From assembly GCA_902785105.1 (NCBI GenBank), contig CACZXF010000011.1:1-38742 (forward strand): a stretch of DNA of 38,742 nucleotides. The letters are read 5' to 3'. Shown piece after piece: positions 1,732 through 37,643 of the stretch; positions within the stretch are counted from its first letter, which is position 1, and each line of letters begins with the position of its first letter. Origin of the DNA: an uncultured Eubacteriales bacterium. GTDB taxonomy: Bacteria; Bacillota; Clostridia; Christensenellales; Aristaeellaceae. Under the pieces are notes generated by a model that did no database searches, was not told the DNA's origin, and saw only the letters and a list, made by a program, of their open reading frames with translations. A program made the translations under genes and the position numbers.

Positions 1732-4700
1732 TTATTTGTAGTAGTCCACCGCGCCGCGGAACATGCCGTTGTCGTAGTTGCCGGGGACGTTTTTGTAGAG
1801 GTCCACGTCGAAGCCCACGCGCTCGGAATGGGCCATCTTGCCGAAGACCCGACCGTCGGGGGAGGTGATGCCCTCGATGGCGGCGCAGGAGCCGTTGGGG
1901 TTGAACCGTATGTCCATGGTGGGCTGGCCGTTCAGGTTGCAATACTGCGTGGCGATCTGACCGTTGGCCGCCAGCTCCGCGATGAATTCATCAGAGGCGA
2001 TGAATTTGCCCTCGCCGTGGGAAATGGGGGCCATGTACACCTCGCCGGTCTTCGTGTGCATCAGCCAGGGGCTCTTGTTGGAGGCGATGCGTGTGGAGAC
2101 CAGCCGCGACTGGTGGCGGCCGATGTCATTGAAGGTCAGCGTGGCCTCCACGCACTGGTCCGCCTCCCTGATCTCGCCGTAGGGCACCAGGCCCAGCTTG
2201 ATGAGCGCCTGGAAGCCGTTGCAGATGCCGCCCATCAGGCCGTCGCGCTGATTCAGCAGCTCGTGTACCTTGTCGCGGATGACGGGATTCCGGAAGAAGG
2301 CCGCGATGAACTTGCCGGAGCCGTCCGGCTCGTCGCCGCCAGAGAAGCCGCCGGGAATGAACACGATCTGGCTGCCCGCGATCTTGTTGGCGAAAGCCTC
2401 AGCGGACTCGGCGACTGCCTTCGCCGACAGATTGCGGATCACCATGACCTCCGGCTCTGCGCCAGCCTTGATGAAGGCCCGGGCGGTGTCGTATTCGCAG
2501 TTGGTGCCGGGGAACACGGGGATCAGCACACGGGGCTTTGCCACTTTGACGGCCGGCGCGACCCGCTTTTCCACACTATAATTAAATGTCAGGGGCTTTT
2601 CGTAGCTCTTTTTGACGGTGGCCGGGAAGACCTCGTTTAATCGGCCCTCGTACAGCGCCTCCAGCTCGTCGGCGGAAATGCTGACGCCGCCGCAGGTGAA
2701 CTGACGCGCCGCGGTGGTCTCGCCGATCACATCCGGGCCGTCGCCCGCGTACTCCACCAGGAAGCTGCCGTAGACGGGGGTGAACAGGTCGACGCCCTCA
2801 CGGAAGGTCACGCCGAAGCCCTCGCCCAAAGCCATGCGGAACGCCGCCGAGGCCGCGCCGCCCTTGCCAACCGCCCAGGCGGTGAGTATGGAGCCGTCCC
2901 GGAGGCCAGCATTTACCCGGTCAAACAATGCCTTCTGGCTCACGGGATCGGGGGTGCCGTTCTCCCGGTAGTCGGGCTTCAGATAGCCGATCTTCGAGCC
3001 GGCCCGCTTGAACGCGCCGGACACGATATTATCAGCCGGGCACACGCCCACGGCGAAGGACACCAGCGTCGGCGGCACATGGATGTCCTCGAAGGAGCCG
3101 GACATACTGTCCTTGCCGCCGATGGCAGCGTAACCAAAGTCCATCTGCGCCTCCAGCGCGCCCAGCAGCGCGGAAAGGGGCTTGCCCCAGGCGGTCTCGC
3201 TGTTCATGCGCTCGAAGTACTCCTGGAAGGTCAGGTGCACGTTCTCAGTGCCGTTGCCAGTCGCCACCAATTTTGCGATGGAATCCACCACGGCCAGGTA
3301 CGCGCCGCGCCAGGGACTTTTCTCGCTGACACAGGGGTCAAAGCCGTAGGCCATCACGCTGGCGGTGTCGCTCTCGCCGCCCTCCACGGGCACGCGGGAG
3401 GCCATGGCCTGGGCCGGGGTGAGCTGACGGCTGCCGCCGAAGGGCATCAGCAGGGACGACGCGCCATTGGTGGAGTCAAACCGCTCGGCGAGGCCCCGCT
3501 GGGAGCAGGTGTTCAGGTCGGAAACAGCGGCCTTCATGCCCTCGGTGAAGTCCATCTGGAGGGTTGCCTGCGCCTTGTCCTGAGCCTTCACACAGACGTT
3601 GGTGTGCTTCGGCGCGCCGTTGGAGTTGAGGAACTCGCGGGCCACGTCCACGATGGTGCGCCCGTTCCAGTGCATCACCAGCCGGGGAGACTCGGTCACA
3701 TGGGCCACCACGGTGGATTCCAGGTTCTCCATATCGGCCAGCCTGCGGAAAGCCGCCACGTCCTCGGGGGCCAGCACCACGGCCATGCGCTCCTGGGATT
3801 CGGAGATGGCCAGCTCGGTGCCGTCCAGGCCTTCATACTTGCGGGGCACCTGGTTCAGGTCGATGTCCAGCCCGTCGGCCAGCTCGCCGATGGCCACGGA
3901 CACGCCGCCCGCGCCGAAGTCGTTGCAGCGCTTGATCATCCTGACGGCCTCGGGAGTGCGGAACAGCCTTTGCAGCTTGCGCTCCTCGGGGGCGTTGCCC
4001 TTCTGGACCTCCGCGCCGCAGGTCTCCAGCGACGCCTCGGTGTGGGCCTTGGAAGAGCCCGTCGCGCCGCCGCAGCCGTCACGCCCGGTCCTGCCGCCCA
4101 GCAGTATCACGATGTCGCCGGCAGCGGGCACCTCCCGCCGCACCTGGTCCGCCGGGGCTGCGCCCACCACCGCGCCGATCTCCATGCGCTTGGCCGCGTA
4201 ACCGTCGTGATAGATTTCCTCAACCAGCCCTGTGGCGAGGCCGATCTGGTTGCCGTAGGACGAATAGCCCGCCGCCGCCGTGGTCACGAGCTGGCGCTGG
4301 GGCAGCTTGCCCTTGATGGTGGCCTCCACAGGCCGGGTGGGGTCCGCCGCGCCGGTGACGCGCATAGCCTGATACACATAGCCGCGCCCGGACAGCGGAT
4401 CGCGGATGGCGCCGCCGATGCAGGTCGCCGCGCCGCCGAAGGGCTCGATCTCGGTGGGATGGTTGTGGGTCTCGTTCTTGAACAGCAGCAGCCACTTCTG
4501 CTTCTCACCATGCACATTCACATCCATCCTGATGGTGCAGGCGTTGATCTCCTCGGATTCGTCCAAATCGGTCAAAAGTCCACGGGCCTTCAGCACCTTC
4601 GCGCCGATGGTGGCAATGTCCATCAGGCAGATGGGTTTGGTGCGGCCCAGCTCATCGCGCAGTGCCAAATACCGCTTGTAGGCCGCTTCCACGTCCGCAT

Positions 4701-28549: not shown

Positions 28550-29257
28550 TTACTTTTTTACGCTGAGAAGCAGCCCATTTTCCGCCTTTACCAGATCATA
28601 CGCCGCCGCGATGGGGTGTCTGTCGCCGACGATCAGATAATCGCAGCGGTCCGCCGTGCAGCACGTCCCCTCGCGGATCAGAGTCGCGTGGAGCGCCTGC
28701 ATGGCCAGGTGATCGCAGTTGCACATCACGGGGAGCACATCCTCCATGTGATGTCGTTTGGCGAACTCCGCGTTGGGACATTGTGTGAAGCAGTAGCGAA
28801 CGACGCCGTCCTCATAGGTATAGCCACCCATGCGGAAGGACGCCGGGAACCGCTGGATCTCCTCGACTCGGATGTCGCTCGCTCTTTTGAAAATTCGATT
28901 CGCCAGCCGGCTGTCCGGCGTGCGGTTCAGATTGAATACCCTGCCGAGGAGGTTATAGACCCCCATAAAGCATTCGTAGATGTCCTGCTGGACGTCTTCC
29001 AGCGGAGGCTTGTCCGGGATCACCCGGTACCAGGCGAAGATGAGTATGGGGTCGTAAATACTGGTGGTCATCCTCACCCCGCCCAGCGCGGGCTCATCCT
29101 TCAGATATTCGCAGTATTGCAGTTGAATCTTTTCCCACAATTCCGCCGCCGTCCGTTCATCGTACCAGCGGTGCAGCAGCTTTTGAACGCACTTTTTGAC
29201 GTTCTTCGTGTAGATCGCGTGCTTTGTGCGATCAAACGGCAAATCCTTTTCCCGCAT
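28550..29257 (-). CDS. L-2-amino-thiazoline-4-carboxylate (ATC) hydrolase family protein
   Basis: The 235-residue product matches the ATC_hydrolase family by its C-terminal half: CPNAEFAKRHHMEDVLPVMC, CNCDHLAMQALHATLIREGT and CCTADRCDYLIVGD. The founding members open a thiazoline ring on the way to cysteine, but most family members have no tested activity. Seven cysteines lie in the last 80 residues, so a metal or catalytic thiol site is likely. The start at 29257 is chosen because TGGAGGT is seven bases upstream; an ATG two codons earlier is too close. It is the first gene of the minus-strand set, facing the divergent methyltransferase operon. Confidence 0.75.
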   Translation of the reverse strand: MREKDLPFDRTKHAIYTKNVKKCVQKLLHRWYDERTAAELWEKIQLQYCEYLKDEPALGGVRMTTSIYDPILIFAWYRVIPDKPPLEDVQQDIYECFMGVYNLLGRVFNLNRTPDSRLANRIFKRASDIRVEEIQRFPASFRMGGYTYEDGVVRYCFTQCPNAEFAKRHHMEDVLPVMCNCDHLAMQALHATLIREGTCCTADRCDYLIVGDRHPIAAAYDLVKAENGLLLSVKK

Positions 29258-29333
29258 CGTCATACCTCCAGACAAGTTCCACCGTGCGCTTCAGGATTTC
29301 ATATATCCAGCTCATCTTCCATTGCCTTTCATG

Positions 29334-29351
29334 AGTTAGCTATATATTACT
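29334..29351. promoter_or_regulatory. Operator-like inverted repeat, site A
   Basis: AGTTAG-CTATAT-ATTACT has one perfect and one partial half of the RTTAG-N6-CTAAY pattern. It lies 77 bases from the ATC-hydrolase start and near a weak minus-strand promoter candidate (TTGACG at 29365-29360). Read on the minus strand it is close to site B. A further looser copy, GTTAG-TTTTAA-CAAAT, lies at 29382-29397. Confidence 0.45.
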
Positions 29352-29402
29352 GCCTTGAACGTCAAACTTCAATATGTTTGTGTTAGTTTTAACAAATAGC
29401 TC

Positions 29403-29430
29403 TTGCATTTCCCGCTTTGTGAGGTATAAT
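29403..29430 (+). promoter_or_regulatory. Promoter of the plus-strand methyltransferase operon
   Basis: TTGCAT (29403-29408) and TATAAT (29425-29430) are 16 bases apart. The predicted start near 29437 lies inside operator site B, so a bound regulator would block transcription. Confidence 0.65.
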
Positions 29431-29432
29431 AA

Positions 29433-29450
29433 AGTAAGCTATAACTAACT
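29433..29450. promoter_or_regulatory. Operator-like inverted repeat, site B
   Basis: AGTAAG-CTATAA-CTAACT is an inverted repeat with five of six arm pairs matching. It sits directly after the -10 of the methyltransferase operon. It shares the RTTAG-N6-CTAAY pattern with sites at 33132 and 36894. Confidence 0.55.
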
Positions 29451-29469
29451 TAATGAAGGGGTGAAGAAT

Positions 29470-30105
29470 ATGGGACTTTTCAAGGATTATGTGAGCCAGA
29501 CCCGCAAGCCGGAGGGCTTTCTGGGAAAGCTGATGCTGAACGGCATGAATTCCGGACACGCGAAGATGGCGGATTGGGGCTTTACACATTTGCCAGCTTT
29601 GACCCCGGAGAAGGCGGCAGATCTGGGCTGCGGCGGCGGACGGAACGCCGGTGAGCTGCTAAAGTTGTATCCCACGGCGCATGTGACCGCCATCGACTAT
29701 TCCGAGCTGTCCGTGGAAAAGGCCCGAGAATACAACCGGGATATGATCGCCGCGGGACGCTGCGAAGTACAGCAGGGAGATGTATCCAATCTCAAGCTGC
29801 CCACCGGGTCATTCGATCTCGCTACAGCCTTTGAAACCATCTACTTCTGGCAGGGACTGGAGAAGTGCTTTGGGCAGGTGGCGAAGGTGCTCAAGCCGGG
29901 CGGATATTTCATGATCTGCAATGAATCCGACGGAACAGACGCCGCGAGCCTGAAATTCGAGAAGATCATTGACGGTATGAAGAACCATACCATAGAGGAG
30001 ATCGAAGGGGCGCTGAGGGCGGCGGGCTTTTCCGAAGTGAAGAGCGACCATCATCCTTCCAAGCCGTGGATCACGGTGCTGGCGAGAAAGCAAGGGGGAC
30101 AGTGA
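29470..30105 (+). CDS. Class I SAM-dependent methyltransferase
   Basis: The 211-residue enzyme shows motif I AADLGCGGGRNAGELL, motif II TAIDYSELSVEKAREYN, QGDVSNLKLPTGSFDLATAF and VLKPGGYFMICNESDG. The ETIYFWQGLEKCF segment is a recognisable signature of a common clostridial methyltransferase group of unknown substrate. The start at 29470 (ATG) has GAAGGGG eight bases upstream; a GTG at 29461 overlaps that site and is rejected. It is the first gene of a five-gene operon, one base from the next start. Confidence 0.87.
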   Translation: MGLFKDYVSQTRKPEGFLGKLMLNGMNSGHAKMADWGFTHLPALTPEKAADLGCGGGRNAGELLKLYPTAHVTAIDYSELSVEKAREYNRDMIAAGRCEVQQGDVSNLKLPTGSFDLATAFETIYFWQGLEKCFGQVAKVLKPGGYFMICNESDGTDAASLKFEKIIDGMKNHTIEEIEGALRAAGFSEVKSDHHPSKPWITVLARKQGGQ

Positions 30106-30106
30106 T

Positions 30107-30886
30107 ATGAAACCTGATTACAAGAACTGGATGCCCAAGGGCATGATCTGGTCCTTTCTGGGCGGGGCGATCGGCTGTGGAATCATTGCGATTGTTCTGA
30201 ACCTGTTGTTGAACGGCACGTTGAGAACCGTGCTGACGGTCATCTTTGCGCTGTTGGCGATCATTTTCTGCGGATTGACCATATGGATGGCGCTGATGCA
30301 TCGCGCGTTCAGCTATGACGGCAAGCGCCAGATGTCCCGGCAGATCATCGAGGGCACGGCGGCATATGTAAAGCTCCCACGGGGCGGCAGGTGCCTGGAC
30401 GTGGGCTGCGGCAGCGGCGCGCTGGCCATCGCCGTCGCCAAACGCAATCCTCAGGCGGAGATCGTGGGCATCGACCGGTGGGGCAAGGAGTACGCCTCCT
30501 TCAGCAGGAAGCTGTGCGAAAACAACGCGAGGGCCGAGGGTGTGAAGAATACCGCCTTCCAGCAAGGCGACGCCACGCGCCTCGAATTTGCCGATGAGGC
30601 CTTCGATGCCGTGGTCAGCAACTATGTTTACCACAACATCCCCGGCGACCGGCAGCAATACCTGCTGGAGACACTGAGGACGCTTAAAAAGGGTGGCGCT
30701 TTCGCGCTTCACGACATCTTTTCCCAATCCAAGTACGGCGACATGCAGGCATTTGTGAAGCAGCTTCGGGATATGGGTTATCAGAAGGTGGAGCTGATCG
30801 ACACCACCGACGGGAAGTTCATGACGAAATTCGAGGCGGGCTGGATGGCACTGAGCGGTTCGGCATTGCTGACGGGAATCAAGTGA
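30107..30886 (+). CDS. Membrane-anchored class I SAM-dependent methyltransferase
   Basis: The 259-residue protein begins with two membrane helices (about 13-33 and 41-63), followed by a cytoplasmic methyltransferase domain. Motifs are CLDVGCGSGALAIAVAKR, IVGIDRWGKEYASFSRK, QQGDATRLEFADEAFDAVVS and LRTLKKGGAFALHDIF. The anchor suggests a membrane-embedded or hydrophobic substrate. The start follows AGGGGG and lies one base after the previous stop. Family function is unknown to me. Confidence 0.85.
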   Translation: MKPDYKNWMPKGMIWSFLGGAIGCGIIAIVLNLLLNGTLRTVLTVIFALLAIIFCGLTIWMALMHRAFSYDGKRQMSRQIIEGTAAYVKLPRGGRCLDVGCGSGALAIAVAKRNPQAEIVGIDRWGKEYASFSRKLCENNARAEGVKNTAFQQGDATRLEFADEAFDAVVSNYVYHNIPGDRQQYLLETLRTLKKGGAFALHDIFSQSKYGDMQAFVKQLRDMGYQKVELIDTTDGKFMTKFEAGWMALSGSALLTGIK

Positions 30887-30896
30887 GGGATTGCCT

Positions 30897-31673
30897 ATGA
30901 AATTTACAGAAATGGGCAGGCCGGATGGCAAGACCGTGCTGCTGCTGCCGGGCACAGCCTGCACCTGGGAGATCAATTTCCACACGGTCATCGACCGGCT
31001 GGCCGAGCGTTATCATCTGATATGCGTCAATTACGACGGCTTCGACGATGAGAAGGCGACAAAGCCCTTCACGGACATGCTGACCGTGACCGGGAAGATT
31101 GAGGATTACATCATCGCAAACCATGGCGGGCGCGTGGATGGGGCCTATGGCTCCTCGCTGGGCGGCAGCTTCGTGGGGCTGCTGATCCAGCGCCGGCGTA
31201 TCCATATCGACCACGGCTTCATCGGCTCCTCCGATCTCGATCAGGGCAGCCCCGTCGTCGCCCGGATTATGACCTGGATCGTGGGGCGGTGGATTGCGGG
31301 CGCGGCGAAGAGCGACAAGAAGCGACAGAAGCTCAAGGACATGCTGGTTAAGAACTTCGGCATGGACATGGACCCCGAGACGGATGCCTTCATGGATGAA
31401 TTCGCAGGAAGCATGGTCTCGCTGCATCCAAGGACGGTAGCGCGGGAGTTCTATTCAGACTATGTGACGCCGCTGGAGGATGACATCCACGTCGATGGCA
31501 CCACGGTACACATCATCTACGCCCTGAAGATGGGGCCCAAGTACGAGAAGCGCTACATGCAGCACTTCCGCGACCCGGACATCATCCGCTTTGACATGCA
31601 GCACGAGGCGTGGATCTTCCAGAGCCAGTGGACGCAGCCCATACTGGACGCCATCGCGGAGCGCATGAATTAA
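30897..31673 (+). CDS. Alpha/beta-fold hydrolase
   Basis: The 258-residue product has an early oxyanion strand TVLLLPGTACTWE and a nucleophile elbow YGSSLGGSF (GxSxG, serine near residue 90). A likely catalytic histidine is in DMQHEAWIF near the C-terminus. No signal peptide is present. The lid region has IVGRWIAGAAKSDKKRQKL, partly amphipathic. The start ATG 30897 has GAGGGA seven bases upstream; the TTG at 30891 is rejected. Placed between methyltransferases, it may cut or form an ester or thioester intermediate, which is inference only. Confidence 0.78.
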   Translation: MKFTEMGRPDGKTVLLLPGTACTWEINFHTVIDRLAERYHLICVNYDGFDDEKATKPFTDMLTVTGKIEDYIIANHGGRVDGAYGSSLGGSFVGLLIQRRRIHIDHGFIGSSDLDQGSPVVARIMTWIVGRWIAGAAKSDKKRQKLKDMLVKNFGMDMDPETDAFMDEFAGSMVSLHPRTVAREFYSDYVTPLEDDIHVDGTTVHIIYALKMGPKYEKRYMQHFRDPDIIRFDMQHEAWIFQSQWTQPILDAIAERMN

Positions 31674-31686
31674 GGGAGGAACCATC

Positions 31687-32292
31687 ATGTTCTGGGACAG
31701 CGTAGCCGGAGTATACGACATCTTCGTCAATGTCATCAACCGAAAGACCCATCAGACATTGAGGAAGATCGTCGCGGAACAGATACAACCGGGCGACAAC
31801 GTGCTGGAATGTGCCTGCGGGACGGGACTGCTCACCGAGGTCATCGCGCCGAGGTGCGAGCGCCTGACGGCCACGGATTTTGCGCCAAAGATGCTCGCGC
31901 GGGCGAAGAAGAATTGTGCTGCGTACGGCAACATCACCTTTGAACCGGCGGACATTACAGCGCTCAATTACCCCGATAACAGCTTCGACGCGGTGGTTGC
32001 CGGGAACGTGATCCACCTGCTGGACGAGCCCATGAAGGCGATTCACGAGCTGGACCGCGTGTGCAAACCCGGTGGAAAGCTGATCATCCCGACCTACATG
32101 AACCGGGATAAAACGGGGAAAACCAGCGGCTTTGCCAGTGCGGTGGGTAAGGCCGGGGCGGACTTCAAGCGGCAGTTCACGGTGGAGAGCTACCGGCAGT
32201 TCTTCCTGGACGCGGGTTACGGCGATGTGACGGTACAGCTTGCCGAGGGACGCATTCCCTGCGCCGCAGCCATGATGAAGAAGGGGATGTGA
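31687..32292 (+). CDS. Class I SAM-dependent methyltransferase
   Basis: The 201-residue enzyme starts MFWDSVAGVYDIFVNVINRK, the UbiE/phospholipid-methyltransferase type of opening. Motifs follow: VLECACGTGLLTEVIA, LTATDFAPKMLARAKK, EPADITALNYPDNSFDAVVA and VCKPGGKLIIPTYMNR. A GGGAGGA site precedes the ATG, 13 bases after the hydrolase gene. It is the third methyltransferase of the operon and differs from the other two in motif detail, so they are not recent duplicates. Confidence 0.86.
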   Translation: MFWDSVAGVYDIFVNVINRKTHQTLRKIVAEQIQPGDNVLECACGTGLLTEVIAPRCERLTATDFAPKMLARAKKNCAAYGNITFEPADITALNYPDNSFDAVVAGNVIHLLDEPMKAIHELDRVCKPGGKLIIPTYMNRDKTGKTSGFASAVGKAGADFKRQFTVESYRQFFLDAGYGDVTVQLAEGRIPCAAAMMKKGM

Positions 32293-32295
32293 CGG

Positions 32296-33024
32296 ATGTC
32301 GAACGCTGAAAAGACGAGGAAGCTGATGCTGGCTGGAATCGCCGGATGTCTGCTTTATGTGGTCGGGGATTTCCTGTTTGCCGCCACGGCTCGGGGTCAG
32401 TCGACGGAAACCATCGGCCTGTTCACCCGGGTGGCATATCTGGACATGGCGGAGTGGCGCATGTGGGGGAGTATACTGTGCGGCTTTACGGGTTCGCTTC
32501 TGTACTACATGGGCTTTCATCAGATGTATGGCCTGCTGGACCTTCGCGTGATCGGGCAGAAGGACAGGCTCTGGGTCCGGCTGTTCAAGGTGGCGTACAT
32601 CACCGGCACCGTCGCCTGGACCTGGGTGCACGCCATGTTCATGACGGATGCGCTGATCTTCAAATATGTGTTCAACGCTTACGGCGATATGCAGACGGCG
32701 GCGGACATCGCCAACCGGGTTTTTTATGCCAACGCGCCGGGCATGGCGGTAGCCTACATACTCTGTGACGTGGAGCTGACGGTCATCATGATTGCGCTGG
32801 TCTGGAAAGGAATCATTCCTTTGAAAAGCACCGGTGCGCGCATTTTGGCGACGCTGTGCAACCCACTCATGCTGCCTGGGGTCGTGGGGAACCTGCTGGC
32901 GCTGCTGCCCTGGCCGCTGAACCAACTGGATCACGGCACGGAGTCCTTCGGCCACGCGCTGGTACTTGTGCTGGGATTGATATTGCTTGAAGAAACGCGA
33001 CGAAAGCCTGCGAACAACAACTGA
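32296..33024 (+). CDS. Multi-spanning membrane protein of unknown function
   Basis: The 242-residue protein has about six membrane helices: near 10-30, 56-78, 97-117, 145-168, 180-205 and 215-232. Charged loops include QKDRLWVRLFK. I do not recognise the family. The start follows GAAGGGG and is three bases after the methyltransferase stop, so it belongs to the same operon. A role in moving the substrate or product of the methyltransferases is possible. No clear terminator follows, and the next gene has its own promoter. Confidence 0.7.
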   Translation: MSNAEKTRKLMLAGIAGCLLYVVGDFLFAATARGQSTETIGLFTRVAYLDMAEWRMWGSILCGFTGSLLYYMGFHQMYGLLDLRVIGQKDRLWVRLFKVAYITGTVAWTWVHAMFMTDALIFKYVFNAYGDMQTAADIANRVFYANAPGMAVAYILCDVELTVIMIALVWKGIIPLKSTGARILATLCNPLMLPGVVGNLLALLPWPLNQLDHGTESFGHALVLVLGLILLEETRRKPANNN

Positions 33025-33095
33025 CAATAATATCAGCATAATTTGGTTTTCGCCTGTCAAGTTCCCATAATAAATGTGAAATTCACGAAAAACCA

Positions 33096-33127
33096 TTGAC
33101 ATTACGGAGGAGTTAGTGTAATATAAT
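33096..33127 (+). promoter_or_regulatory. Promoter of the DUF3793-flavodoxin operon
   Basis: A perfect TTGACA (33096-33101) is followed at 17 bases by TAATAT (33119-33124) and at 20 bases by TATAAT (33122-33127). The first has better spacing, the second the better hexamer. An AGTTAG half-site lies in the spacer at 33111-33116 and operator D starts just after. Confidence 0.65.
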
Positions 33128-33131
33128 ATTG

Positions 33132-33149
33132 AATTAGATAAAACTAATT
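33132..33149. promoter_or_regulatory. Operator-like inverted repeat, site D (perfect)
   Basis: AATTAG-ATAAAA-CTAATT is a perfect inverted repeat at the predicted transcription start, six bases before the GGAGGG ribosome site. It is the best copy of the shared RTTAG-N6-CTAAY pattern. Confidence 0.65.
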
Positions 33150-33167
33150 TGCTTGGAGGGATGTTAC

Positions 33168-33722
33168 GTGCTGGATCGCGCCATCATCGATCACGCCTCG
33201 CCCACGCTGGCTCGGCTAAAGCTGGGCAATCTGTTCAACCATACCATGGGACAGGACTTTCCCGTGGAATTTGCCGCTCTGCGCAGGCAGCTTATGGACA
33301 AGGGTGTGACGATGACGATCCTGAAGGTCTCCGGGGGCAAGGCGCTGATCTATCTCTACCGGGCGGAGGAACTGGAGAGAACGCTTGCGGACGAAGGCGT
33401 GCGGCAATTGCTTGAAACCTGCGGCTACAGTCACTTTGATGTGGGTGGAGCGCTAAAGACGCTGCGGGCACGGCTTCACGACCTCGACAGCTTTCCCCAC
33501 GAGATCGGCGTCTTTCTGGGCTATCCGCTGGAGGACGTCGTGGGGTTCATCGAAAACGGCGGCAGGAACTGCCTGTCCTGCGGCTGCTGGAAGGTGTATT
33601 CCAATGAATGCGCGGCGCTCGCGGCGTTTGCGCGATTTGAGAAGTGCAAGACAGTCTATCAACGGCTGTTTGCGTCGGGCTGCCCGCTGACCCGTCTGAC
33701 GGTGGCGGCCAGAACGGCATAA
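33168..33722 (+). CDS. DUF3793 family protein
   Basis: The 184-residue product starts at GTG 33168, seven bases after GGAGGG. The family signature is clear in HEIGVFLGYPLEDVVGFIEN, the CLSCGCWKVYSNE segment and the closing FEKCKTVYQRLF. DUF3793 genes are often found beside flavodoxins and ferrous-iron transport genes in Clostridia, and here a flavodoxin follows. The cysteines (CLSCGC) could bind iron or a cluster. The role is unknown; an iron- or redox-linked function is inferred from neighbours. The stop lies 21 bases before the flavodoxin start. Confidence 0.85.
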   Translation: MLDRAIIDHASPTLARLKLGNLFNHTMGQDFPVEFAALRRQLMDKGVTMTILKVSGGKALIYLYRAEELERTLADEGVRQLLETCGYSHFDVGGALKTLRARLHDLDSFPHEIGVFLGYPLEDVVGFIENGGRNCLSCGCWKVYSNECAALAAFARFEKCKTVYQRLFASGCPLTRLTVAARTA

Positions 33723-33743
33723 ATATCGAGGAGGAATATCAAA

Positions 33744-34151
33744 ATGAGCAAGGTAGCAGTCGTGTTTTACAGCGGTTCCGGCAACACCGAGGCCATGGCG
33801 GACGTGATCGTGAACGCCTTGGGCGCGGACAAGATCGAGGCGGAGGCCTTCGGCGCGGCGAAGGTGGCTGACTATGATGCCATCGCCTTCGGATGCCCGG
33901 CCATGGGCGACGAGGTGTTGGAGGAGACCATCTTCCAGCCCATGTGGGATGACGTGAAGACCGGCCTGGCGGGCAAGAAGGTGGCGCTGTTCGGCTCCTA
34001 TGGCTGGGGTGACGGCCAGTGGATGCGTGACTGGGAAGCGGACGCCCAGGCCAATGGCGTGACTCTGGCCTGCGAGAGCGTGATCTGCAATGAGGCTCCC
34101 GACGACGAAGCCAACGCGGCGCTGGAAGCGCTGGCAAAGGCCATCGGCTGA
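33744..34151 (+). CDS. Short-chain flavodoxin
   Basis: Flavodoxins carry electrons on FMN and often replace ferredoxin when iron is scarce. The 135-residue product has the FMN phosphate loop YSGSGNTEAMA near residue 9, the FGCPAMGDEVLEE flavin-side loop and the second loop FGSYGWGDGQWM. Length fits the short-chain type. An AGGAGGA site precedes the start. It is the middle gene of a three-gene operon under operator D, which fits control by iron or redox state. Confidence 0.93.
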   Translation: MSKVAVVFYSGSGNTEAMADVIVNALGADKIEAEAFGAAKVADYDAIAFGCPAMGDEVLEETIFQPMWDDVKTGLAGKKVALFGSYGWGDGQWMRDWEADAQANGVTLACESVICNEAPDDEANAALEALAKAIG

Positions 34152-34167
34152 ACGGAGGACATGTGAG

Positions 34168-35832
34168 ATGAAGAAGCTATCGTGTATACTGCTGGTCTTG
34201 GTGATGATGCTTGGCGCGATGGCCCTTGCGGAGACGACGGGCGTCATCGAGATTGGCACTGTCGAGGAGCTGGCCGCGATCAATGACAACCTTTCGGGGA
34301 ATTACGTCCTGACTGCCGACCTCGATCTGGCGGGTGTGGAATGGAAGTCCATTGGCGCTTACGCGCCCTCCGGCGAGAGTGCCGAGGAGCAGGAGATCCC
34401 CGCCGCTGAGACTGCCTTTACCGGTAGCTTCGACGGCCAGGGGCACACCATTTCCAATCTCGTCATCAATCAGCCCGAGGGATGGGCGCAGGGCCTGTTC
34501 GGCTGCGTTTCCAACGCGAAGGTCGGCAACTTTACCCTGGAGAACGCCACCGTGGACGCGCAGATGATGAGCGCTGACGTGGTGGGCTATGCCTACTGCT
34601 CCACCGTGAGCAATGTGACACTTGTGAATGGCAGGGTCAACGCCCACTGGGGCGAAGCGAGCGCCGAGGGCATGTATGGCGGCATCGTCGGTGCGGGCAT
34701 GGGCTCCATGGTGGAGAACTGCACCGCCCAGGCGGATATCACGCTGCCCGACGGCACCGCAAACGCGGGCATCGTGGGCGGCGGCCTGGAGATGACCAGT
34801 GTCGTGGGCTGCACTGCCACCGGCACCGTCACCGCGGGCAACGATTGCTACGGCCTGGGTGGCGTATCCGGCTGCGGCTTCGCGGCGGAGCAGTTCACGG
34901 ATTGCACGGCGGATAATGTGGTCATCACCGCCGGCGACAACTGCTTCTGGATCGGCGGCGTCACGGGCTATGCGGGCGGCTATGCGGACGAACAGTACGG
35001 CATGCCCGTGACCGTGTTCACGAATTGCGTCGCAAAGAATATGACCGTCAATGCGGGCGCAAACGCCGACGGCATCGGCGACATCGTGGGTGCGGGCTTT
35101 TACAATGAGCAGGTGGCCCAGTCCATGGGCGCGCCCTTCGACCAGCCGACTCAGTTTGAGCTGGTGAATTGCACGACGGACAGTGCGAAAGCTGACGACA
35201 CTGCCGCCGCGGCACAACTGCTTGAGGATGTGAAAGGCACATACGTGGCACTTTTCCCGATTATCACCGATCCCGCTTACGATCAGATCTGGCTGGACCA
35301 CTGCGCCGCCGTGGTGGGGGATGAGATGGCTCCGGCGGTGGCACAGGCCCTGAAGGATGCCTGCAACGGCACGATCTATGGCCAGGAGGCTATCGACGTC
35401 TACGGCGACGGCTCCAACGGCGCGCAGTTCGACTGCCTGTTCATCAATGGCGTGGACCAGATCACCTTCGACGGCGCGGTCATTAGCGGCACGCTGGCGG
35501 GCGAAACGGTGTTTTCTCACGAGTACGCCTATGTCAGCCCTCTGTCACTGGGCGGCATGATGAACGGCTACCTCTATGAGACTGCCGACGCGGATGCGGG
35601 CGAATTCAAATACTTCTTCATGATGCCCGACACACCGGCCAGCACCTATCACCTGGAGTTCCGCTACGGCAGTGACGTAGACGCTCTGACCGAGTACGCC
35701 ACCGGCCCCTATGCCTACTGGCTTGCCGCCGGTTTCACGGTGGATGCGGACCAGACGATGACCGAGAACGTGATCGGCCTGTTCTGCGACGAGAATCTGG
35801 CGGAGATGGCCGGCGAACAGCCTGCTGCCTGA
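34168..35832 (+). CDS. Secreted beta-helix (GLUG-like) protein with C-terminal ZinT-like metal-binding domain
   Basis: The start at 34168 has GGAGG nine bases upstream. The 554-residue product has a signal peptide (1-21, ending AMALA). Residues about 30-330 form GLUG-like turns, seen in repeats such as GGIVGAGMGSMVENCTA, AGIVGGGLEMTSVVGCTA and GGVSGCGFAAEQFTDCTA, expected to build a beta-helix. Residues about 351-554 resemble ZinT lipocalins: IYGQEAIDVYG, FINGVDQITFDGAVISGT, GEFKYFFMMPDT, YHLEFRYGSD and GPYAYWLAAG. His495 matches the first histidine of the ZinT HFH block; the second is Glu. No sortase motif or lipobox is seen, so it is probably released. A metal-capture role is inferred. Confidence 0.72.
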   Translation: MKKLSCILLVLVMMLGAMALAETTGVIEIGTVEELAAINDNLSGNYVLTADLDLAGVEWKSIGAYAPSGESAEEQEIPAAETAFTGSFDGQGHTISNLVINQPEGWAQGLFGCVSNAKVGNFTLENATVDAQMMSADVVGYAYCSTVSNVTLVNGRVNAHWGEASAEGMYGGIVGAGMGSMVENCTAQADITLPDGTANAGIVGGGLEMTSVVGCTATGTVTAGNDCYGLGGVSGCGFAAEQFTDCTADNVVITAGDNCFWIGGVTGYAGGYADEQYGMPVTVFTNCVAKNMTVNAGANADGIGDIVGAGFYNEQVAQSMGAPFDQPTQFELVNCTTDSAKADDTAAAAQLLEDVKGTYVALFPIITDPAYDQIWLDHCAAVVGDEMAPAVAQALKDACNGTIYGQEAIDVYGDGSNGAQFDCLFINGVDQITFDGAVISGTLAGETVFSHEYAYVSPLSLGGMMNGYLYETADADAGEFKYFFMMPDTPASTYHLEFRYGSDVDALTEYATGPYAYWLAAGFTVDADQTMTENVIGLFCDENLAEMAGEQPAA

Positions 35833-35850
35833 CAAAAAGCCAGACATACA

Positions 35851-35890
35851 ACAGGGACTCTGAGTGCTCAGAGTCCCTGTTCTGCTGCAT
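35851..35890 (+). terminator. Terminator of the flavodoxin operon
   Basis: ACAGGGACTCTGAG (35851-35864) pairs perfectly with CTCAGAGTCCCTGT (35867-35880) around a TG loop. The tail TCTGCT is T-poor, so strength is moderate. It starts 18 bases after the ZinT-like gene. Confidence 0.7.
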
Positions 35891-35945
35891 GACGATAAAC
35901 GTACTGTCAAACCTAACGTTGCTGACGGGCGATATAGTGTCAGAG

Positions 35946-36476
35946 ATGAAGAAAAACAAACTCCTCTCTGTACAAACATGGGTGTGGCACAATACATTCG
36001 CGGATAATACAGATAGAGACGATACCTATCAATAGCGTGATCACTGCTGAAGATTATAGCGATCACTGGTTCACATCATCCATCGCGGACTATGTAGATG
36101 AGGAATATGACCCTGAGGAGCCCTTATCGAATCTCAGATTTATCCTTGGCGCATGCGGAGATCTTGTGGAGTTCTTCGCTGATGAGAAGGGCGCGGTGTG
36201 ATTTTCAGAGAAGGCTTTCAGTGGGCTTATTTCGCTGCGGGGTTTGATGTCTTCCAGGAGGCGATACAGAAATTGACTGCTTCTTCCACACTGGATCGGT
36301 TTTGCTCTGGCACCCTCTGACAGAAACTGTACGACCTAAACAGCGCCTATGACAATGAGACCGGATTCTATATCGAGAACGAAGAACTGGGCTTAATGAC
36401 TCTGGCGAGATTTATGCGGTTGGCAAAGCCTGACGTGAAGTATTACTTCGTCGGAACGCTGGATTATCATTTTTGA
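35946..36476 (+). pseudogene. Broken ORF of unknown family (frameshifts and an in-frame TGA)
   Basis: Three joined stretches read like one protein. An opening MKKNKLLSVQTWVWHNTF ends at TAG 36033. A +1 frame gives HWFTSSIADYVDEEYDPEE and ILGACGDLVEFFADEK, ending at TGA 36199. A third frame from 36201 gives FREGFQWAYFAAGFDVFQEA, meets TGA at 36318, and continues as YDLNSAYDNETGFYIENEE and KPDVKYYFVGTLDYHF to TGA 36476. Codon use is coding-like and less GC-rich than the neighbours. I do not recognise the family; the style recalls accessory proteins of mobile elements. Confidence 0.5.
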
Positions 36477-36566
36477 GTGACCACACATCTTCTTCCATCC
36501 GGGCGAGCAAAGGGAAAATATCCAAACAAAACCCCAAAAAAGACGAACAAAGGGGAGGGGAGCGCC

Positions 36567-36755
36567 ATGACAGATGAATTGATCCGCAGACTTATTGTTG
36601 CAGACCTGTCCAAGCAGCAAGCGTCCAGTGTGACGGCAGAGACGCTTGTCAATCTTTTCATGCCGGATGACGGAAAGAAACTGATTCTGGCAGCAGAAAA
36701 ACCAGGTAACAGAGATGAACACAATAGTCCAGGAGATGAAGGCTCAATACCTTGA
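36567..36755 (+). CDS. Small hypothetical protein (62 aa)
   Basis: The start at 36567 follows a strong GGGGAGGGGAG site. The product begins MTDELIRRLIVADLSKQQAS and is mostly helical to about residue 45. The last part, GNRDEHNSPGDEGSIP, looks out of frame and overlaps the next small ORF, so the gene may be frameshifted near its end. Base composition is lower in GC than the conserved genes. No family recognised. Confidence 0.45.
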   Translation: MTDELIRRLIVADLSKQQASSVTAETLVNLFMPDDGKKLILAAEKPGNRDEHNSPGDEGSIP

Positions 36756-36837
36756 TTTAAAGCGAAAGATGGTCACATTCGCAGACAATACACTCTTCTG
36801 CGAAGATAATCGTGTGACTCTAATAAATAGTGATTAA
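36715..36837 (+). CDS. Small hypothetical ORF (40 aa)
   Basis: The frame reads MNTIVQEMKAQYLDLKRK then MVTFADNTLFCEDNRVTLI. It overlaps the end of the preceding small ORF by 41 bases in another frame and has only a weak ribosome site. It may be the true continuation of that gene after a frameshift, or a separate short gene. No family recognised. Confidence 0.35.
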   Translation: MNTIVQEMKAQYLDLKRKMVTFADNTLFCEDNRVTLINSD

Positions 36838-36893
36838 GCACATCTATTTTTTTAACTTGACTCCGATTCTCCAAAGTGCTGTAGTTTTATTAT

Positions 36894-36911
36894 GATTAGA
36901 AAAATCTAACT
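36894..36911. promoter_or_regulatory. Operator-like inverted repeat, site E
   Basis: GATTAG-AAAAAT-CTAACT matches the shared RTTAG-N6-CTAAY pattern with five perfect arm pairs. A TATAAT at 36911-36916 directly follows, so the site would occupy the -35 to -10 spacer of a promoter for the DUF4198-like remnant. No good -35 is visible. Confidence 0.55.
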
Positions 36912-36938
36912 ATAATGTATAGAATTGGAGGATTGTCA

Positions 36939-37350
36939 TGAAAAAAACCGAGTTCTTGTCTTGCTCCTGCCTGTAGCCATGTCCGTTATCCCCATGAGTG
37001 CATCCGCGCATGGCGTGTGGTTCGCAATGCGCTGTGATCGTACACAGTTGGTTTGTGGCGAAGGCTGGAAGGATAATGGCTATGCCCCCAATGAACTGAT
37101 CCGCATGAATGGATACGAAGCGTCTTACGCCGATGTAAACGTTGAGCCTGTCAATCCTCCAATGAACTTCGGTGATACCATTATCGTACCGGGTGCCGCA
37201 AATGTCAACCATGGAGGTGAAAGCGCGCCGCCCCATGGAACCTTCCGGGCTATGCCCTTCAGGTTCCATGGGGCGGATGGACGACCGTTTTTTTTCGTCC
37301 ATGTACTTCTCACTTCCCCACAACAACTAATATACGAGGAGGATTACTGA
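36939..37350 (+). pseudogene. Frameshifted DUF4198/NikM-like secreted metal-binding protein remnant
   Basis: ATG 36939 has a GGAGG site seven bases upstream but runs into TAG after 12 codons. Adding one A to the A7 run at 36942-36948 would open a frame with a signal peptide (MKKNRVLVLLLPVAMSV, cleavage SASA-HG). The mature start HGVWFAMRCDRTQLVCGEG and KDNGYAPNELIRMNGYEA resembles DUF4198 periplasmic proteins linked to nickel/cobalt uptake. Past residue about 95 the frame runs through a long hairpin and looks non-native, so the C-terminus is probably lost too. It could be off by mutation, switched by slippage, or rescued by slippage during transcription; decay is the simplest view. Confidence 0.5.
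37228..37302 (+). terminator. Long hairpin followed by a T8 tract inside the remnant
   Basis: CCGCCCCATGGAACCT (37228-37243) pairs perfectly over 16 bp with 37261-37276. An inner GGGC/GCCC stem extends it. A second inverted repeat, ATGGACGA (37277-37284) and TCGTCCAT (37295-37302), encloses T8 at 37288-37295. The arrangement can act as a terminator, with 11 bases between the first stem and the T-run. Confidence 0.5.
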
Positions 37351-37643
37351 TGTTACAGGTTAACGAATCTGACTGGTAGCTGTTCAGGAAGCGCCTGCCT
37401 GACTGTCAGGAAAGGCATATGGAAGGCCTTATTCGGGAGTATGCCGCTCTCTTAGCTGGCTCTGGCGCGGGTTCCGATAAATTCTGGACACTTGAAGCGC
37501 GGATCCGGGAAGATCAGAGGCATGTGGGTGTTGTTGCCCGGATGAGTCGGTCGAATATGTACACGAACCTCCTGGCTTTGCTTCAGGATGGCGTGATCAC
37601 GCTGGATGATCTGAACGGTTTCAGCGACGATCTGAAAGAATGA
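37350..37643 (+). pseudogene. Conserved small clostridial protein interrupted by in-frame TAG at codon 10
   Basis: ATG 37350 has a strong GAGGAGG site seven bases upstream. The frame reads MLQVNESDW, then TAG (37377-37379), then LFRKRLPDCQERHMEGLIRE, DKFWTLEARIRED, MSRSNMYTNLLALLQDG and a closing TLDDLNGFSDDLKE. It fits a small clostridial protein family I recall from its DKFWxLExRI and MSRSNM segments; its role is unknown. The rest of the frame is intact. A single base change (for example AAG to TAG) would explain it. Re-initiation at ATG 37419 would give only 74 residues. Confidence 0.55.

What the first reader, a model, noticed from the sequence alone, without database searches (positions are those of the whole stretch)
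29334..36911. A shared inverted repeat RTTAG-N6-CTAAY marks three neighbouring loci as one predicted regulon
Seen directly: AGTAAG-CTATAA-CTAACT at 29433, AGTTAG-CTATAT-ATTACT at 29334, perfect AATTAG-ATAAAA-CTAATT at 33132 and GATTAG-AAAAAT-CTAACT at 36894. Each lies at or beside a predicted promoter, with the same arm length and N6 spacing. I found no copy elsewhere in the window. The genes served are the methyltransferase locus, DUF3793-flavodoxin-ZinT, and a DUF4198/NikM-like remnant. The last two contexts point to metal or redox control (DtxR/IdeR boxes also contain TTAG-N6-CTAA, though off-centre); a TetR- or MarR-type repressor is the alternative.
Basis: partly seen in the sequence, partly recalled or inferred. 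Interest (0 to 1): 0.78.

Follow-up and report, generated by a model that had tools for sequence, protein, structure and literature searches.

The report
Iron-control DNA switch across Clostridia
A short mirrored DNA word in this bacterium marks a predicted set of iron-starvation genes, and the same word sits before some of the same genes in many other Clostridia, probably read by an iron sensor related to the diphtheria toxin repressor.

Summary
The motif is real and conserved far beyond the window. Two window copies are exact (33133, 36895), 29434 has one mismatch, and 29334 has two (chance level). Two one-mismatch copies were missed: 29382 and 33112. The draft genome holds 9 exact copies (reversed control 2); spacer 6 stands out (11 matches against 1-5 for each other spacer from 3 to 9). 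An exact box lies within 800 bp upstream of DUF3793 in 74 of 80 named clostridial loci; other spacers give 0-3. In relatives, boxes also precede FTR1, FeoB, ZIP, DUF2325, hydrogenase and DtxR-family genes. TTAG-N6-CTAA has the geometry of the published single-dimer IdeR site (TTAGG-N4-CCTAA) without its inner G/C. Best reading: an iron-responsive DtxR-family operator. The likely regulator here is a 121-aa DtxR protein with its own box and six expected metal ligands. Against: 6 of 20 genus genomes that carry the DUF3793 box lack this protein; only 4 of 30 related DtxR loci have an exact box; the own feo operons have none; outside the genus total counts do not exceed the reversed control. The 36895 locus stays weak; ZinT and DUF4198 labels were not confirmed. 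No binding or expression data exist here.

The parts
33096..33124 (+). sigma-70-like promoter of the DUF3793 operon (TTGACA-N17-TAATAT)
   Evidence: a one-mismatch box 21-22 bp before the exact box in 15 of 20 genus genomes with DUF3793, own included
33133..33148 (+). exact operator box ATTAGATAAAACTAAT, 21 bp after the previous box
   Evidence: exact box before DUF3793 in 26 of 30 loci examined, this one included
33168..33722 (+). DUF3793 protein (PF12672), first gene of the operon
   Evidence: (E 1.2e-53)
33744..34151 (+). flavodoxin
34168..35832 (+).
   Evidence: look-alike proteins in L275 and L286 have exact boxes 16-19 bp upstream
   Evidence: kept in G009, G017, G019
29403..29430 (+). 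promoter TTGCAT-N16-TATAAT of the methyltransferase operon (by eye)
   Evidence: sequence; similar elements in the aligned relatives; not listed by the scan
29434..29449 (+). operator box GTAAGCTATAACTAAC (one mismatch) just after the -10
   Evidence: RTAAG-N6-CTAAC kept in G009, G017, G019; G004 and G005 have a GATAG-N6-CTAAC box there and an exact box nearby
29335..29350 (+). doubtful box GTTAGCTATATATTAC (two mismatches)
   Evidence: also in G017, not in G009 or G019
29470..30105 (+). SAM-dependent methyltransferase, first of a row of five genes running to 33024
28550..29257 (-). divergent ATC_hydrolase-family gene (PF14196); a G006 gene of this family has an exact box 22 bp upstream
   Evidence: (L243)
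36895..36910 (+). exact but isolated box ATTAGAAAAATCTAAC before a decayed reading frame
   Evidence: no relatives of the frame in 45 other genomes
36925..37350 (+). remnant reading frame without a significant Pfam match (83 in-frame residues tested); DUF4198/NikM label not confirmed

Best explanation
RTTAG-N6-CTAAY is the operator of an iron-responsive DtxR-family repressor. One metal-loaded dimer binds each 16-bp box, and boxes are often paired. In the window the pairs overlap or flank the -10 and +1 of promoters, so that in iron-replete cells RNA polymerase is excluded. When Fe2+ falls, the dimer loses its metal and leaves, and an iron-starvation set is made: flavodoxin to replace ferredoxin, DUF3793, DUF2325, FTR1, FeoB or ZIP transporters in the species that wire them so, methyltransferase operons and ABC transporters. 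In this genome the most likely repressor is the 121-aa DtxR protein at C41:47443-47805, whose own promoter carries a box. Shown by sequence: the operator, its spacer, its conservation at DUF3793, its neighbouring genes and its linkage to DtxR genes. Inferred: identity of the regulator, the metal, and the sign of control.
For: (1) Of the 80 best named DUF3793 loci (of 490 found), 52 have an exact box within 300 bp and 74 within 800 bp; other spacers 0-1 and 0-3; shuffled 300-bp upstreams mean 0.09. (2) 26 of 30 DUF3793 loci examined in the genome's relatives have an exact box within 350 bp (30 of the 32 matches). (3) DtxR genes sit with DUF3793 and boxes in distant lineages: of 7 DtxR genes found near DUF3793 in the 80 loci, 5 have an exact box upstream; 3 of the 5 lead straight into DUF3793 (L188, L195, L204) and 2 are divergent from it. 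G085 has a DtxR-DUF3793 pair with two boxes. (4) The own DtxR has an exact box 33 bp before its start. (5) Pfam tally of 79 box-adjacent genes: DUF3793 8, FTR1 5, ZIP 4, DUF2325 4, Fe-hydrogenase 3, DtxR 3. (6) TTAG-N6-CTAA equals the one-dimer geometry TTAGG-N4-CCTAA of IdeR (PMC8464063). (7) The protein matches MntR and IdeR structures and keeps D9, E12, H78, C100, E103, H104; sulfur ligands such as Cys102 raise Fe2+ selectivity in IdeR (PMC10317159; other ligand equivalences are recalled). (8) Outside the genus, genomes with a DtxR match at 1e-15 or better carry more boxes (mean 4.9, n=33, against 1.1, n=9; P 5e-4, genomes not independent). (9) In C. acetobutylicum iron limitation induces flavodoxin, there through Fur (PMC5050335, passages).
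Against: Within the genus there is no such correlation: mean 7.3 boxes in 22 genomes with a match, 7.8 in 6 without. All 20 genus genomes with DUF3793 have the exact box before it, but 6 (G011, G013, G014, G018, G023, G024) lack the C41-type protein, against 1.7 expected from incompleteness (P 0.004). G011 has the paralogue type that in the own genome sits beside feoB; in G013, G018 and G024 the box-linked DtxR-like protein is of a type whose metal ligands are gone. Exact boxes were found in only 4 of 30 DtxR loci of relatives, own included; 9 of 30 with one mismatch allowed. The 5-of-7 linkage is not an independent test, because DUF3793 operons have boxes anyway. The own two feo operons have no exact or one-mismatch box directly upstream. 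The inner G/C of the IdeR site is nearly absent (G 12 of 324). Outside the genus the summed count does not exceed the reversed control: 396 to 432 in 92 genomes, although that control is a poor match in composition (355 to 28 in the own genome). Two of the 5 FTR1 genes come from stretches that I picked for their DtxR-like genes (G013, G018). No binding or expression data.
Confidence: 0.7

Rival explanations
1. The operator belongs to another dimeric repressor (winged-helix, TetR or AraC type), and DtxR genes are simply among its targets.
For: Six genus genomes carry DUF3793 and its exact box without the C41-type DtxR. A TetR gene (L284) and six AraC-type genes lie beside boxes. DtxR genes that share DUF3793 operons could be mere passengers.
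Against: In the 84-site survey AraC genes were seen only at FTR1 loci, and TetR was noticed once (only 25 of 77 families are shown). DtxR genes recur beside boxes in distant lineages. The geometry equals the IdeR half site.
Confidence: 0.15
2. The metal sensed is manganese or zinc rather than iron, through an MntR-like DtxR protein.
For: Closest solved relatives are MntR; D9 is the MntR-type ligand (PMC10317159); ZIP genes are adjacent to boxes.
Against: Cys at the IdeR Cys102 position; FTR1, FeoB, flavodoxin and hydrogenase neighbours.
Confidence: 0.13
3. Chance inverted repeats in AT-rich gaps.
For: 29335 is within chance; C105:3191 overlaps a TTGAT-N4-ATCAA repeat (an FNR-like word, recalled); 36895 fronts a remnant without relatives. 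The reversed control finds 2 in this genome, so some of the 9 own sites may be accidental.
Against: 74 of 80 against 0-3 for other spacers, shuffle mean 0.09 for 300 bp; spacer 6 excess in the own genome.
Confidence: 0.02

Closest known systems
IdeR/DtxR iron box of Actinobacteria (TTAGGTTAGSCTAACCTAA)
   Same: TTAG and CTAA arms; one IdeR dimer occupies TTAGG-N4-CCTAA, the same TTAG-N6-CTAA geometry (PMC8464063: passages, part of the abstract among them, and section 18 read)
   Different: Consensus here is GTTAG-N6-CTAAC with inner G nearly absent; boxes are separate, 28 of 53 neighbouring pairs 21-23 or 55-68 bp apart, instead of two overlapping dimer sites
MntR manganese regulators
   Same: Short DtxR-family protein, too short for an SH3-like domain (inferred from 121 aa); Asp at the first ligand position; best match among solved structures
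   Different: Cys instead of Glu at the IdeR Cys102 position; operator differs (MntR operator recalled)
Clostridial Fur regulon, e.g. of C. acetobutylicum
   Same: Iron transport and flavodoxin under iron control (PMC5050335, passages)
   Different: Different protein family and box; the one Fur-family gene here lies in a znu-like cluster (read by eye) with no copy of the box at up to two mismatches in the 3.3 kb held

Membership tests
DtxR/IdeR-type iron regulation | A DtxR-family regulator (PF01325 + PF02742) encoded in the genome | tested here: met
   C41 protein, E 1.4e-14 and 1.3e-15, both over cut-off; second copy in the C42 feo cluster
DtxR/IdeR-type iron regulation | Operator with TTAG/CTAA arms in single-dimer geometry | tested here: met
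   TTAG-N6-CTAA; spacer tests; published geometry
DtxR/IdeR-type iron regulation | Inner G/C of TTAGG...CCTAA, as in the 19-bp two-dimer box | tested here: not met
   G next to TTAG in 12 of 324 half-sites
DtxR/IdeR-type iron regulation | Conserved metal ligands | tested here: met
   D9, E12, H78, C100, E103, H104 in the C41 protein (position equivalence partly recalled); the box-linked third type lacks them
DtxR/IdeR-type iron regulation | Iron uptake genes under the operator | tested here: met
   In relatives: FTR1 5 of 79 adjacent genes, 2 of them from hand-picked stretches; FeoB 9 of 20 ORFs, some of them fragments. Not met for the own feo operons
DtxR/IdeR-type iron regulation | Regulator present wherever the operator is | tested here: inconclusive
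   Correlates outside the genus, fails in 6 of 20 genus genomes
DtxR/IdeR-type iron regulation | Metal-dependent binding and repression | not testable with these tools
   needs gel shift and expression data
TetR/MarR/AraC repressor regulon | A gene of that family recurrently beside boxes across taxa | tested here: inconclusive
   TetR noticed once, AraC six times at one locus type; distant loci were not surveyed for these families
Fur regulon | Fur gene linked to the operator | tested here: not met
   single Fur-family gene, no RTTAG-N6-CTAAY copy with up to two mismatches in its 3.3-kb locus

The most novel reading that the evidence does not exclude
A Clostridia-wide iron-starvation regulon runs on separated single-dimer DtxR operators, often in pairs 21-23 or 55-68 bp apart, with two families of unknown function, DUF3793 and DUF2325, as recurrent members. 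In one genus a DtxR-like protein that has lost its metal ligands is box-controlled beside the FTR1 iron permease and may modulate the repressor.
Probability: 0.48. Interest if true: 0.74.

Novelty: new variant of a known kind. Interest (0 to 1): 0.6.

Why it matters
A precise operator would let anyone list candidate iron-starvation genes in many clostridial genomes, most of them uncultured, would give a first functional context (iron homeostasis) to DUF3793 and DUF2325, and would show that single-dimer DtxR sites, reported for one native IdeR promoter and one designed DNA (PMC8464063), can be the rule in another group of bacteria.

Tried and rejected
Rejected: ZinT and DUF4198 labels; the 29335 copy as a firm site; the own feo operons as targets (a two-mismatch copy lies before the C74 one, and a one-mismatch copy about 750 bp before the C42 one); a known structured RNA, no Rfam match at gathering threshold in 29200-37400. 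C105:3191 is doubtful because it overlaps a TTGAT-N4-ATCAA repeat. The frame at 36925 had no relative in 45 other genomes. The reversed pattern proved mismatched in composition as a control (355 to 28), so spacer variants were used beside it. A first upstream scan that ignored strand was replaced. The binomial figures for DtxR (5e-5) and FeoB were dropped as evidence: boxes cluster, DtxR shares operons or intergenic regions with DUF3793, and some FeoB ORFs are fragments. For this reason I lowered the main confidence from 0.74 to 0.70. Literature: no paper in the held library prints the motif in the five spellings tried; DUF3793 gave one paper, on a fungus, seen in the listing only; searches for DtxR regulons in Firmicutes, Clostridium or Lachnospiraceae and for clostridial iron-dependent repressors gave no paper on this operator that I could see (listings; of these I read passages of PMC5050335 only). 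PMC4689551: passages. Subscription papers and RegPrecise were not searched.
Full report
WHAT IS THERE. The window is contig 11 of a 3.44-Mb draft genome in 131 contigs, 91.9% complete; its nearest named DUF3793 relatives are uncultured Clostridiales and Clostridia bins, several with ruminant-gut sample names. Scored against RTTAG-N6-CTAAY, two are exact (33133, 36895), one has one mismatch (29434) and one has two (29335). Two further one-mismatch copies, 29382 and 33112, were missed. Five copies with at most one mismatch against a mean of 1.0 in shuffles is more than chance; the class with up to two mismatches is not.

GENOME SCAN. The exact motif occurs 9 times in the genome, 2 times reversed. 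TTAG-Nx-CTAA occurs 11 times for x=6 and 1-5 times for each other x from 3 to 9 (P 2e-4; 0.003 without the two discovery sites). The nine sites lie before a ZIP transporter, DUF3793-flavodoxin, a remnant (36895), a methyltransferase, a DtxR gene, DUF2325 (two boxes, 22 bp apart), an ABC transporter and a pyruvate-formate-lyase-like gene (the last name is from reading the protein, and that site overlaps an FNR-like word). I then took all 73 sites of six genus genomes chosen for their high counts, the nine own sites, and one each from G013 and G018, two stretches picked for their DtxR-like genes: 84 of 84 fell between genes and 79 within 300 bp of a start, by a gene caller I trained on 20 window ORFs. 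The arms carry stop codons, so some avoidance of genes is expected anyway. Over the 27 other genus genomes the exact motif occurs 198 times against 83 reversed; over the 92 genomes outside the genus 396 against 432.

CONSERVATION. DUF3793 loci from relatives: 26 of 30 examined (own included) have an exact box within 350 bp upstream, among them all 20 genus genomes with the gene (30 of the 32 matches had a locus). In 15 of the 20 a one-mismatch box precedes the exact one by 21-22 bp, and a divergent DUF2325 often has its own exact pair. In 80 named loci (the best 80 of 490, found by DUF3793 and not by the motif) 52 have an exact box within 300 bp and 74 within 800 bp; spacers 2-5 and 7-11 give 0-1 and 0-3; shuffles of the 300-bp upstreams average 0.09, at most 1. 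Without the 17 closest loci the counts are 36 and 58 of 63. The six spacer bases vary. This is the core result, and it rests on the motif test alone.

THE WINDOW LOCI. At 33096-33148 a TTGACA-N17-TAATAT promoter has one box over its -10 and one right after it. At the methyltransferase operon the two one-mismatch boxes (29382 before the -35 and 29434 after the -10) are kept in G009, G017 and G019; G004 and G005 have a one-mismatch box after the -10 and an exact box nearby; the other 8 of the 14 loci examined show none in 310 bp (14 of the 30 loci, the closest matches). The 29335 copy is shared only with G017. The 36895 box fronts a frame with no relative in 45 other genomes and no significant Pfam match; it may be a relic or an accident.

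THE REGULATOR. Of 79 box-adjacent genes (60 aa or more, within 220 bp) the Pfam tally is DUF3793 8, ABC 6, methyltransferase 6, AraC 6, FTR1 5, ZIP 4, DUF2325 4, Fe-hydrogenase 3, DtxR 3 (25 of 77 families shown; 2 FTR1 and 2 AraC come from the picked G013 and G018 stretches; the 3 DtxR are close orthologues in G000, G004, G006). Outside the genus DtxR genes recur with the boxes: 5 of 7 DtxR genes near DUF3793 in the 80 loci have an exact box upstream. Three of these lead directly into DUF3793 or DUF2325-DUF3793, and two are divergent from DUF3793 with the box nearer to DtxR. G085 has the DtxR-DUF3793 order with two boxes. This is evidence of linkage, not an independent count. In one search, 10 of 15 DtxR hits outside the seed set have a box, but 4 of the 10 (L033, L040, L047, L057) came from the pattern search itself. 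The own genome has three matches over the family cut-off; the third (C22) reads like a MarR-type protein. The one at C41 has an exact box 33 bp before its start. It is closest to MntR among solved structures and keeps six metal ligands, with the MntR-type Asp and the IdeR-type Cys. PMC10317159 (passages) says that the sulfur ligands of IdeR raise Fe2+ selectivity and that MntR has Asp or Asn and Glu there; the other equivalences are recalled. FeoB: 9 of 20 ORFs in the 80 loci, fragments included, have an exact box in -250..+90; the two ZIP genes found there have none.

WHY THE GEOMETRY FITS. PMC8464063 (passages; [quoted passage not shown] TTAG-N6-CTAA is the same frame without the inner G/C. 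In 324 half-sites of the 80 loci the base outside TTAG is G 252, A 70, T 2, and the base inside is G only 12 times. So it works like an IdeR half site but is not the classical box. Of 53 neighbouring exact pairs less than 150 bp apart, 9 are 21-23 bp, 19 are 55-68 bp and 9 are 125-138 bp apart; helical phasing was not tested.

RESULTS AGAINST. Within the genus, box number does not follow presence of the C41-type DtxR, and 6 of 20 genomes with DUF3793 and its box lack that protein, more than incompleteness predicts (1.7, P 0.004). G011 has the type that in the own genome sits beside feoB. G013, G018 and G024 have a third DtxR-like gene in a box-fronted row with an AraC-type gene, divergent from FTR1; its metal ligands are gone in the two copies aligned, from G008 and G013. 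In G014 (72% complete) and G023 (88%) neither type was found. Only 4 of 30 DtxR loci have an exact box. The own feo operons have none. Outside the genus the box count follows the DtxR match (P 5e-4, related genomes counted as independent), but its sum does not exceed the reversed control. The regulator assignment is therefore likely, not proven; iron as the signal rests on the neighbouring genes and the Cys ligand.

NOVELTY. DtxR-type iron control is known; this operator and gene set were not seen in the open library in the searches, which does not cover most subscription journals or RegPrecise. I rate it a new variant of a known kind.

Noticed in passing
L295:3445-3864, L296:3141-3551, L256:2630-3052, L278:2589-2960: A third type of DtxR-like gene follows an AraC-type gene in a box-fronted row divergent from the FTR1 iron permease in G008, G013, G018 and G024; the two copies aligned (G008, G013) have lost the metal ligands.
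   Followed up: partly
C105:3192-3205 and 3971-3983 (locus L015): TTGAT-N4-ATCAA repeat overlapping the motif before a pyruvate-formate-lyase-like gene, and ATTAGTTT-N4-AAACTAAT before the neighbouring CRP/FNR-like gene: possibly a separate oxygen or redox circuit.
   Followed up: no
L019:2752-2900: The only Fur-family gene lies in a znu-like cluster; upstream of its first gene is a GAAAATCGTTTTC repeat, possibly a Zur box.
   Followed up: no
L245, L272, L277, L290: Fe-only hydrogenase and other iron-sulfur protein genes in genus relatives also carry exact boxes; whether they are repressed or activated is open.
   Followed up: partly
L306:1501-2924 as reverse complement: In G004 the methyltransferase orthologous to 29470 is followed by a gene that reads like a ZIP transporter (no family search done), which would link it to metal uptake.
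   Followed up: no
L284:1941, L280:2042, L287:813: Boxes GTTAGTGTTAGCTAAC and ATTAGTGTTAGCTAAC before a TetR gene and ABC-type genes contain a nested GTTAGCTAAC and may be a different operator.
   Followed up: no
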